Program-made: the position numbers and the translations under genes | Part shown: positions 15,183 to 25,133 of the stretch, piece after piece | How the letters are laid out: each line of letters begins with the position of its first letter | Numbering within the stretch: the stretch's first letter is position 1 | Assembly (NCBI GenBank): GCA_025355505.1 | Contig: JANXZM010000105.1 | Span: 1 to 53,709 of the forward strand | Length of the DNA: 53,709 nt | Direction of reading: 5' to 3' | From: Acidobacteriaceae bacterium | GTDB lineage: Bacteria > Acidobacteriota > Terriglobia > Terriglobales > Acidobacteriaceae | Notes under the pieces: model-generated | What the model was told of the DNA's origin: nothing | Seen by the model: only the letters and a program-made list of their open reading frames with translations | The model's database searches: none

Positions 15183-17203
<2,021 letters not shown>

Positions 17204-17205
17204 AC

Positions 17206-17254
17206 CATTGAGACATTGAATCATTGAGTTATTCAATGATTCAATGCCTCAATG
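17206..17254 (+). repeat. Near-perfect 49-nt hairpin abutting the kdsA start
   Basis: The left arm (17206-17227, starting CATTGAGACATTGAATC) and right arm (17233-17254) pair at 21 of 22 positions around the loop GTTAT. The hairpin begins 3 nt after the pyrG stop and ends 5 nt before the kdsA ATG, filling the whole gap. It is built from ATTGA/TCAAT units, and one more CCTCAATG unit supplies the kdsA start codon. Confidence 0.9.
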
Positions 17255-17259
17255 CCTCA

Positions 17260-18108
17260 ATGACCTTATCCTTCCAAATCGATAACGTTCGCGTCGGCGC
17301 CGGCGATCTGTTTCTCATTGCCGGGCCGTGTGTGATTGAGAGTGAAGAGCACGCGCTGCGCATGGCGGAGATCATCAAAGGCGTGGTGCGTTCGCTGAAT
17401 ATTCCGTTTATCTTTAAGGCGTCGTACGACAAGGCGAACCGCACGTCGATCCGCAGCTATCGCGGGCCGGGGATGAAGGAAGGCCTGCGCATTCTGAAGA
17501 GAGTCAAAGATGAAGTACACGTTCCGGTGCTGACCGATGTGCATCAGGTGGCCGACGTTGCCGCAGTGGCCGAGGTGGTGGACGTGTTGCAGATTCCGGC
17601 ATTCCTCTGCCGGCAGACCGATTTGATTGTGGCGGCGGCGCTGAGCGGGCGTCCGGTGAACATCAAGAAGGGGCAGTTCGTTTCGCCCTGGGACATGAAG
17701 CACGCCGTCGCAAAATGCCGCGATGCCGGGAATAGCCAGGTTTTTGTGACCGAGCGTGGTTCGAGTTTCGGCTATAACAATCTGGTGGTGGACATGCGTT
17801 CGCTGGCCATCATGCGCAAGTTCGCGCCGGTGGTGTTTGACGCGACGCATTCGGTGCAGTTGCCGTCGGCTTCCTTCGGCGATGAGGATCAGCCCGCGGT
17901 GAGCGGAGGCCAGCCTGAGTTTATCCCGGTGTTGTCGCGAGCGGCGGTGGCGGCGGGGGTGGACGGCGTGTTCATGGAAGTCCACGACAATCCAAAGGAA
18001 GCGAAAAGCGACGGCGCAAACGCGCTCGACACGCGCAACTTGCGCGGCCTGCTCAAAGAATTGCAGGCGGTGAAGAAGGCTGTGGACGCGGCGCACGCGT
18101 CACCGTAG
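17260..18108 (+). CDS. kdsA: 3-deoxy-8-phosphooctulonate (Kdo-8-P) synthase
   Basis: Condenses PEP with arabinose 5-phosphate to Kdo-8-phosphate, the first committed step to the LPS sugar Kdo. 282 residues, normal length. Family motifs: [15 protein letters not shown] near the N-terminus, [12 protein letters not shown], the PEP-site region PVLTDVHQ, and [13 protein letters not shown] 17260 is chosen because the family begins just before it; the longer reading from TTG 17224 only translates the repeat. There is no Shine-Dalgarno: the region that should hold it is the right arm of the hairpin at 17206-17254. It probably forms an operon with pyrG (56-bp gap). Confidence 0.96.
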
Positions 18109-20295: not shown

Positions 20296-20435
20296 TCACA
20301 CATGAATAGCAGGAAATGCACCGCCAGTTCACTGTACCGCTTCAGTGCGCAGGTCGGTGACAGGCATAGCAGACCTGTGTGATGTCGGCGGGACGGGTGA
20401 TTCCGATCACCCGATGACCCGATGCTCTGGTGACT

Positions 20436-20449
20436 TCTGCTACCATTTC
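20436..20449 (+). promoter_or_regulatory. TCTGCTACCATTTC motif, candidate extended -10 (kdsD)
   Basis: Second copy of the 14-mer seen at 18123. TACCAT (20441-20446) lies 9 nt before the kdsD ATG, so transcription would begin almost at the start codon. kdsD has no Shine-Dalgarno, consistent with a leaderless message. Confidence 0.45.
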
Positions 20450-20455
20450 TCCTTC

Positions 20456-21475
20456 ATGAAACACATCGGCGAAAACGTGGTGCGGATTGAGGCTGAGGCG
20501 TTGCGGGCGCTGGCGGACAGGCTGGCTGGCGTCATGGCCGCGGATTTCGACCGGGCGCTTGAACTGATGTTGGGCTGCCGAGGCCGGGTGGTGGTTACTG
20601 GGATGGGAAAGAGCGGTCTCATCGCTCGCAAGATCGCGGCTACGTTGAGTTCGACCGGGTCGCCGGCGCTCTATTTGCATCCGGTGGAGGCGCTGCATGG
20701 CGACCTGGGGATGATCGTGCGCGGCGATGTGGTGCTGGCGCTTTCGGCTAGCGGCGAGACGGAGGAGATTTTGCAGTTGATGGCTACGCTCAAACGGCTG
20801 CAGGTGCCGCTGATCAGCATGACTTGCGACGACATTGCGGAAACCCCCGCGGACAAGAGTGTCCGCGCCACACGGGCTTCTACTCTGGCGGCTGCTGCTG
20901 ATGTGGCTTTGGACTGCTCGATTTCCGTGGAAGCTTGCTCGCTGGGGCTTGCTCCTACGGCTTCGACCACAACCATGCTAGCTCTGGGCGATGCGCTGGC
21001 GGTGGCGCTTTCGGAAAAACGCGGGTTCAAGGAAGAAGATTTTGCCAACCTGCATCCTGGTGGAAAGCTGGGCAAACGGCTGGCGCGGGTCGAATCGTTG
21101 ATGCACTCGGGAGACGCGGTTCCGCGAGTGACGGCGCAGACAAAGATGCCCGAAGTGATTTACGAAATGTCACGCAAGAAGTTGGGAATGACGACTGTGG
21201 TCGAGGGCGAACGTTTGCTGGGGGTGATCAGCGACGGCGATCTGCGGCGGTTGCTGGAGCAACGCGGCAAAGACACGCTCGACCTGATGGCGCAGGATTG
21301 CATGACGCGATCGCCGAAAACGATCGGCGCGCAGGAGTTTGCAGCCACCGCGCTGGCGCGTATGGAAGAAATGAAGATTACTTCGCTGGTCGTCGTGGAC
21401 AGCGTCGCGGACAACCCTCCGCGCTTGCTGGGGATTGTGCATCTGCACGATTTGTGGGGAACGGAGATGGTGTAG
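20456..21475 (+). CDS. kdsD: Arabinose-5-phosphate isomerase (KdsD/KpsF family)
   Basis: Interconverts ribulose 5-phosphate and arabinose 5-phosphate, feeding KdsA. 339 residues: a SIS sugar-isomerase domain (about 25-190; VVVTGMGKSG, STGSPALYLHPVEALHGDLG, ALSASGETEE) and two C-terminal CBS domains (about 215-335). The start is ATG 20456, as in relatives. Residues 128-141 (AETPADKSVRATRA) have no counterpart in typical KdsD, where a Thr-Gly-rich turn leads straight to STLA. They are encoded by a palindromic repeat (20849-20877) inserted in frame. The catalytic region after it (EACSLGLAPTASTT) is intact, so the enzyme is probably functional. Confidence 0.95.
   Translation: MKHIGENVVRIEAEALRALADRLAGVMAADFDRALELMLGCRGRVVVTGMGKSGLIARKIAATLSSTGSPALYLHPVEALHGDLGMIVRGDVVLALSASGETEEILQLMATLKRLQVPLISMTCDDIAETPADKSVRATRASTLAAAADVALDCSISVEACSLGLAPTASTTTMLALGDALAVALSEKRGFKEEDFANLHPGGKLGKRLARVESLMHSGDAVPRVTAQTKMPEVIYEMSRKKLGMTTVVEGERLLGVISDGDLRRLLEQRGKDTLDLMAQDCMTRSPKTIGAQEFAATALARMEEMKITSLVVVDSVADNPPRLLGIVHLHDLWGTEMV
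20849..20877 (+). repeat. GCGGACA palindromic repeat, copy A (inside kdsD)
   Basis: A 29-bp unit with a 7-bp stem (GCGGACA/TGTCCGC), a 4-nt loop and the tail GCCACACGGGC. It differs from copy B at 22868 at only two positions and lies within the kdsD reading frame. Confidence 0.9.
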
Positions 21476-25060: not shown

Positions 25061-25133
25061 TTTAACCGCAGAGAACGCGGAGTACGCAAAAGAAATGAAA
25101 AACTTCGCGCTCTCCGCGTCCTCTGCGGTTAAA
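25061..25133. repeat. Long inverted repeat (AACCGCAGAG type), probable terminator on the minus strand
   Basis: The left arm TTTAACCGCAGAG (25061-25073) plus CGCGGAG (25076-25082) pairs with CTCCGCG (25112-25118) plus CTCTGCGGTTAAA (25121-25133): 20 bp with a single 2-nt internal mismatch. Read on the minus strand it is followed by TGTTTTT, so it could end the dehydrogenase transcript 7 bp past its stop codon. Confidence 0.85.

What the first reader, a model, noticed from the sequence alone, without database searches (positions are those of the whole stretch)
17206..17254. A 21/22-bp hairpin fills the pyrG-kdsA gap and replaces the kdsA ribosome site
The arms pair almost perfectly, with a 5-nt loop; the structure ends 5 nt before the kdsA ATG. 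No Shine-Dalgarno is present, and the repeat unit itself provides the ATG context. A stem this stable so close to the start should hinder initiation unless ribosomes arrive from pyrG or the stem is used as a control device tying Kdo synthesis to CTP supply. It may equally be a repeat that happened to land here.
Basis: partly seen in the sequence, partly recalled or inferred. Interest (0 to 1): 0.6.

Follow-up and report, generated by a model that had tools for sequence, protein, structure and literature searches.

The report
Interchangeable repeat hairpin between two genes
The hairpin between pyrG and kdsA in this acidobacterium is one copy of a scattered repeat, and most relatives carry a hairpin in the same gap built from unrelated repeats, which points to a slot that keeps being refilled rather than a switch tying Kdo synthesis to CTP.

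Summary
Arms 17206-17227/17233-17254 pair at 21 of 22 positions around a 5-nt loop, and the stem ends 5 nt before the kdsA ATG. The arms are tandem copies of an 8-nt unit, CATTGANN, scattered through the genome (29 hits against 2 for a reversed control).

In 33 pyrG-kdsA gaps of the same family, 26 fold clearly better than shuffles (z <= -2). The repeat type differs: at least eight types by eye, which do not follow the tree (22 changes, shuffled mean 21.6). Hairpins are concentrated at certain junctions, and three other junctions have relatives with short, hairpin-free gaps. No row has a Shine-Dalgarno motif between hairpin and kdsA start (0 of 33). In this genus only, a rare AGA codon just before the hairpin is kept in 18 of 22 rows.

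Best reading: a dispersed short-unit palindrome in a tolerant operon junction that is refilled repeatedly, with kdsA probably translated by coupling to pyrG. The CTP-Kdo device is not supported. That any hairpin is selected there is not excluded.

The parts
15509..17203 (+). pyrG, CTP synthase
   Evidence: Pfam CTP_synth_N and GATase; NCBIfam CTP synthase over its cut-off
17196..17199 (+). GGAG in the last pyrG codons (TGG AGA TAA), SD-like, on the upstream side of the hairpin; possible ribosome site for kdsA, inferred
   Evidence: sequence; AGA is the last pyrG codon in 18 of 22 genus rows, AGA being 2.2% of 895 Arg codons
17206..17227 (+). left arm, three copies of CATTGANN
17228..17232 (+). 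5-nt loop
17233..17254 (+). right arm, inverted copies of the same unit
17255..17262 (+). extra inverted unit outside the stem; supplies the kdsA ATG
   Evidence: match 17249-17262 on the minus strand
17260..18108 (+). kdsA, 3-deoxy-8-phosphooctulonate synthase
   Evidence: Pfam DAHP_synth_1; NCBIfam PRK05198 and KDO8P_synth over their cut-offs

Best explanation
The hairpin is one copy of a dispersed class of intergenic palindromes whose arms are tandem arrays of a short degenerate unit (8 nt here, CATTGANN; 7 or 8 nt in most of the periodic ones). Shown: it is dispersed, the gap is a hairpin in most relatives, and the sequence type changes between close relatives without following the tree. 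Inferred: such elements insert and are replaced at operon junctions where they do no harm, and the pyrG-kdsA junction is one. Inferred: kdsA, which lacks an SD next to its start, is translated by ribosomes delivered from pyrG (coupling or reinitiation), with the purine tract at the pyrG end helping in this genus, so that a self-folding insert is tolerated. No specific regulation of Kdo by CTP is needed.
For: Dispersal: 29 pattern hits against 2 for the reversed control in the own genome, 17 BLAST places (some are the two strands of one place). An unbiased scan of 854 kb of the own genome found 43 inverted repeats against 1 in one Markov-chain control, 38 of 43 between genes by my rough gene calls, where non-coding DNA is 12-21%. 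Of 140 inverted repeats in 1.84 Mb of genus DNA, 71 have periodic arms: 7 or 14 nt in 36, 8 nt in 34, 9 nt in 1. Same gap, other sequence: 26 of 33 family rows have z <= -2; labels change 22 times, shuffled mean 21.6; sister pairs such as G001/G011, G010/G004 and G016/G014 show no gap similarity (z -0.8, 0.3, -1.3). Other junctions: hscB-hscA 14 of 16 genomes with a hairpin with at least four unit types by eye. Filled and empty alleles: a gap of 1-3 nt in 8 of 17 genomes and inserts in the others.
Against: Occupancy is uneven (chi-square 114 for 26 df over 27 sites, largest of 2000 permutations 58), which plain random landing does not predict. Flanking duplications, the mark of insertion, are exact at 7-11 nt in only four alleles seen (G008 and G009 at one junction, G018 and G007 at another), two of these without a hairpin, and I computed no chance level. 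No mobilising enzyme was found. Coupling is not shown, and one review reports that structure just downstream of the stop codon correlates negatively with coupling (PMC12548453, passages seen).
Confidence: 0.65

Rival explanations
1. A hairpin of any sequence is selected at this junction: it brings the SD-like pyrG tail near the kdsA start, or sets coupling or mRNA processing. Repeats are merely the raw material.
For: 26 of 33 rows with z <= -2 although the sequence type has no phylogenetic signal; strong site-to-site differences in occupancy; 0 of 33 SD motifs between stem and start; AGA kept as last pyrG codon in 18 of 22 genus rows while 38 of 40 Arg columns have at most 13% AGA; AGA ends 4 of 67 Arg-ending genes of the own genome.
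Against: G012 has a gap no more stable than shuffles (z +1.2) and 7 of 33 rows miss z <= -2. Outside the genus only 1 of 11 rows ends pyrG in AGA, though their gaps are hairpins too. The short folded distance is not special: unpaired outer residue median 7 nt, shuffled 9 nt. The 18 AGA rows may be one ancestral state. Two junctions with hairpins have relatives with a 1-5 nt gap. Compensatory changes were few at hscB-hscA: 0 of 21, 4 of 30 and 1 of 23 pairs in three groups.
Confidence: 0.22
2. A control device tying Kdo synthesis to CTP supply.
For: Only the gene order pyrG-kdsA and the hairpin position.
Against: No conserved arm, loop or ligand-like feature at the site across relatives; no Rfam match in the window; the same kinds of hairpin at junctions unrelated to CTP or Kdo. 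The pyrG-kdsA order occurs in other bacteria, with a gap under 30 nt in 50 of 70 non-family loci (recounted without three family loci).
Confidence: 0.03
3. A terminator, attenuator or mRNA-end stabiliser for pyrG, as reported for REP elements (recalled).
For: A stable stem directly after a stop codon.
Against: No T-run follows on the plus strand; the only terminator-like calls using this stem are on the minus strand. kdsA would be cut off from pyrG with no clear promoter of its own (one 9-of-12 match, about the shuffled mean of 0.5).
Confidence: 0.1

Closest known systems
REP/REPIN elements with RAYT transposases
   Same: Dispersed, intergenic, palindromic, non-coding, able to form hairpins.
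   Different: No GT(A/G)G head, arms are tandem 8-nt units and not GC-rich, many unrelated unit types in one genome; RAYT-like genes of the genus are mostly not flanked by such hairpins.
Mycobacterial interspersed repetitive units (MIRU)
   Same: Short dispersed elements sitting at start/stop codons of neighbouring genes with little harm, as the review passage describes (PMC12548453).
   Different: MIRUs are described there as carrying an ORF coupled at -4 nt; here the element is a hairpin with no ORF shared by relatives. The 3-codon ATG CCT CAA TGA overlapping the kdsA ATG follows from the repeat unit (read).
Short tandemly repeated repetitive (STRR) heptamers of cyanobacteria (recalled, no call)
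   Same: Short 7-nt units in dispersed arrays.
   Different: Here units are paired into hairpins, and 8-nt units are as common as 7/14-nt ones.
Phage T4 genes 38 and 25, where a hairpin brings a distant SD to the start codon (recalled; search found no direct paper)
   Same: A hairpin between a purine tract and a start codon that lacks a nearby SD.
   Different: There one conserved stem is known; here the stem sequence is interchangeable and function is untested.

Membership tests
REP (RAYT-associated) | GT(A/G)G head (PMC2817692, passage) | tested here: not met
   the sequence before and in the left arm is AAACCATTGAG, without GTAG or GTGG
REP (RAYT-associated) | GC-rich imperfect palindrome | tested here: not met
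   arms are CATTGA units; imperfect palindrome yes, GC-rich no
REP (RAYT-associated) | found beside the RAYT gene | tested here: not met
   30 of the Y1_Tnp loci of the genus (of 61 rows listed) scanned: no CATTGA hairpin; 2 of 30 had another short-unit hairpin, several had 11-12 bp hairpins of another kind
MIRU | mobile, inserts at start codons | tested here: inconclusive
   hairpins abut starts and short gaps exist in relatives, but exact flanking duplications in only four alleles
MIRU | internal ORF coupled to the next gene | tested here: inconclusive
   a 3-codon ORF overlaps the ATG here, but TTG or GTG starts in 25 of 33 rows make it non-general
Intrinsic terminator | GC-rich stem followed by a T-run on the coding strand | tested here: not met
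   no plus-strand match using this stem
Known RNA family or riboswitch | match to an Rfam 15 model at the gathering score | tested here: not met
   0 matches in the window
Hairpin-bridged SD (T4 gene 38/25 type, recalled) | SD upstream of the hairpin that is needed for initiation | not testable with these tools
   SD-like codon bias in this genus only; needs a reporter

The most novel reading that the evidence does not exclude
Selection keeps a hairpin of any sequence at particular operon junctions, pyrG-kdsA and hscB-hscA among them, where the downstream gene lacks its own SD; the hairpin acts as a folding spacer that lets ribosomes pass from the upstream gene or its purine-rich tail to the next start, and rapidly turning-over repeat families supply replaceable hairpins.
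Probability: 0.2. Interest if true: 0.8.

Novelty: new variant of a known kind. Interest (0 to 1): 0.5.

Why it matters
Dispersed bacterial palindromes are usually described one family at a time. Here one operon junction is mostly a hairpin across a family while the repeat type is swapped between close relatives. That separates position or structure from sequence and makes a plain test possible: is the hairpin itself used, or is the junction simply a safe landing place? It also warns against reading a single-genome hairpin before a start codon as a gene-specific switch.

Tried and rejected
Rfam search of the window: nothing. RAYT mobilisation: Y1_Tnp genes match in 21 of 24 genus genomes, but 30 scanned loci gave no CATTGA hairpin and only 2 with another short-unit hairpin; not supported. 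Terminator reading: no plus-strand support. Collapse to a short folded distance as evidence of design: dropped, since shuffled gaps fold to a similar outer residue (7 against 9 nt). Arm covariation in 38 CATTGA elements: 30 of 57 variable dinucleotides match their partner (shuffled mean 15.6, largest of 2000 shuffles 29), but this count favours the best register; with best-register hybrids the arms pair only modestly better with their own partner (20.2 against 17.4; 29 of 38 elements), so I do not lean on it. Compensatory change at hscB-hscA: weak; its own tree shows no clustering of labels (12 changes, shuffled 10.6), but two of those labels are close subtypes, so changes are overcounted.

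Literature: string searches gave no relevant paper; word searches for acidobacterial intergenic palindromes, REP with target duplications, MIRU and coupling, SD-bridging hairpins, cyanobacterial repeats and swapped repeat families at one site gave no description of this class in the listings seen. Passages only were seen of PMC12548453, PMC2817692 and PMC3116915. The library lacks most subscription journals, so absence from print is not shown.

Full report
WHAT IS THERE. The hairpin is real. Arms 17206-17227 and 17233-17254 pair at 21 of 22 positions with a 5-nt loop, and the region folds better than all of 200 shuffles. pyrG ends 2 nt before it and kdsA starts 5 nt after it. The gene names hold: CTP synthase and 3-deoxy-8-phosphooctulonate synthase. 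The arms are tandem copies of CATTGANN; five matches to CATTGANNCATTGA lie here against 0.2 expected in the window, and the ATG of kdsA is part of a further copy.

DISPERSED REPEAT. In the own genome (4.16 Mb, 119 contigs) the pattern has 29 hits against 2 for the reversed pattern. In 61 genomes (own and relatives) 30 have a hit; within the genus counts run from 0 to 123. In 297 genomes spread over the phylum 70 have a hit, mostly one or two, with one distant genome (G083) at 23, some in facing pairs. An unbiased scan of 854 kb of the own genome gives 43 inverted repeats against 1 in one Markov-chain control. By my rough gene lie in tandem, 9 in convergent and 7 in divergent gaps, 3 inside genes and 2 at stretch ends. 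Many unit types occur; in 1.84 Mb of genus DNA, including many orthologous stretches, 71 of 140 inverted repeats have periodic arms of 7/14 or 8 nt, one of 9 nt.

THE SAME GAP IN RELATIVES. KdsA was sought in 61 genomes. Of 37 in the family 35 matched. Five were dropped before the gap count: G021 (fragment, not fetched), G023 (contig edge), G030, G031 and G035 (no pyrG found upstream). The other 30 genomes gave 31 rows (G018 has two), plus two named records (L077, and L078, Candidatus Sulfotelmatobacter), 33 in all. A further near relative, L085 (KdsA 83% identical), was left out: 442 nt part pyrG from kdsA there, by eye with another ORF and no short-unit palindrome next to kdsA. The named neighbours place the window in Acidobacteriota, Terriglobia, probably near Candidatus Korobacteraceae (inference). 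Gaps run from 51 to 359 nt. 26 of 33 have z <= -2. The seven others are G015 (-1.9), G020 (-1.8), G032 (-1.8), G013, G022 and RYN10 (-1.4 each) and G012 (+1.2). By eye the fillings fall into CATTGA (3 rows), CCGCCGAGACGC (10), TTAGCTTTTAGC (2), CACGGAG/CACAGAG and similar (4), TTTGTAATTTG (4), GTTTCTAGTTTC-like (5), ATCGGGTGATC (2), CAATTGGCAATTTGC (1) and two unassigned; some of these calls (KAN5, RYN10, G028) are weak. On the pyrG+kdsA tree the labels need 22 changes, shuffled mean 21.6; only 12 of 30 inner branches are well supported, but those alone force for instance 7 changes for the largest type. Sister pairs have unrelated gaps. Outside the family, 50 of 70 loci with pyrG upstream have gaps under 30 nt; of the other 20, 9 have z <= -2 (recounted without three family loci that my filter had let in).

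OTHER JUNCTIONS. I compared 30 orthologous gaps in 5-20 genomes each around three anchors: 87 of 344 cells hold a hairpin. pyrG-kdsA 10 of 10, hscB-hscA 14 of 16, many sites 0. Occupancy is uneven beyond chance (chi-square 114, largest of 2000 permutations 58); this treats genomes as independent. The anchors were picked because the own genome has a hairpin there, so their own rates are biased upward. At hscB-hscA the types again differ. Upstream of a TadA-type ATPase gene, 2 genomes have a 5-nt gap and most others an insert; one gene further on, 8 of 17 have 1-3 nt; at the next gap 7 of 17 have 26-29 nt with an SD, and the own-genome insert leaves that SD intact. Exact repeats of 7-11 nt around the upstream stop codon flank inserts in G008 and G009 at the first site and G018 and G007 at the second; the last two have no hairpin, other filled alleles lack them, and no chance level was computed.

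TRANSLATION. GGAG, GAGG or AGGA 5-20 nt before kdsA: 0 of 33 rows; at called starts of the own genome 30% of 639, shuffled 17%. Before the stem the last pyrG codon is AGA in 18 of 22 genus rows, where AGA is 2.2% of 895 Arg codons; the Arg codon two places earlier is AGA in 9 of 19, and the other 38 Arg columns have at most 13%. In the own genome AGA ends 4 of 67 Arg-ending genes. SD-like motifs in the last 20 nt of the upstream gene are commoner for close tandem pairs (43% of 42) than for convergent (18% of 84) or far tandem pairs (19% of 160). This suggests a purine tract serving kdsA across the hairpin. Against it: only 1 of 11 non-genus rows ends in AGA, the AGA rows may be one ancestral state, and the folded distance is no shorter than in shuffles. 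The start codon is TTG in 20 rows, ATG in 7, GTG in 5 and unassigned (CTG) in 1; in this genome the repeat supplies ATG.

VERDICT. An ordinary kind of thing, a dispersed intergenic palindrome, with an unusual population history: the slot is mostly kept filled, the filling is interchangeable. Shown: dispersal, occupancy, change of type. Inferred: insertion and replacement, coupling. Not shown: any regulatory role. No CTP-Kdo switch is needed or supported.

Noticed in passing
window 25061-25133: A second hairpin in the window (TTTAACCGCAGAGAACGCGGAG arms, loop 29) upstream of an aminotransferase gene; relatives hold CGCAGAG-type or CCGCCGAGACGC-type repeats there, or another upstream gene.
   Followed up: partly
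L051 2368-2637, minus strand (relative G015): The pyrG-kdsA gap of G015 is 359 nt; the stretch between its CCGCCGAGACGC arms holds an 85-aa ORF with a hydrophobic C-terminal part by eye, as if the hairpin carried a small gene.
   Followed up: no
L381, L382, L383 (relatives G001, G008, G011): A Y1-type transposase-like gene lies about 230-380 nt downstream of kdsA on the other strand in three relatives.
   Followed up: no
pyrG-kdsA gaps in L048, L050, L054, L056: A second palindrome (GATCCCTCGCTTCGCTCAGGATGACA type, either strand) lies in the loop of CCGCCGAGACGC hairpins, as if nested; the own genome has it free-standing as well.
   Followed up: no
L236-L258, own genome hairpins such as C106:33893 and C68:44057: GTAGAGACGGGGCTTGCC-type palindromes have the GTAG head described for true REPs, so REP-like and short-unit hairpins probably coexist in this genome.
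   Followed up: no
window 20345-21475: A KpsF/KdsD-type arabinose-5-phosphate isomerase gene lies near kdsA, so two Kdo-pathway genes are close together.
   Followed up: no
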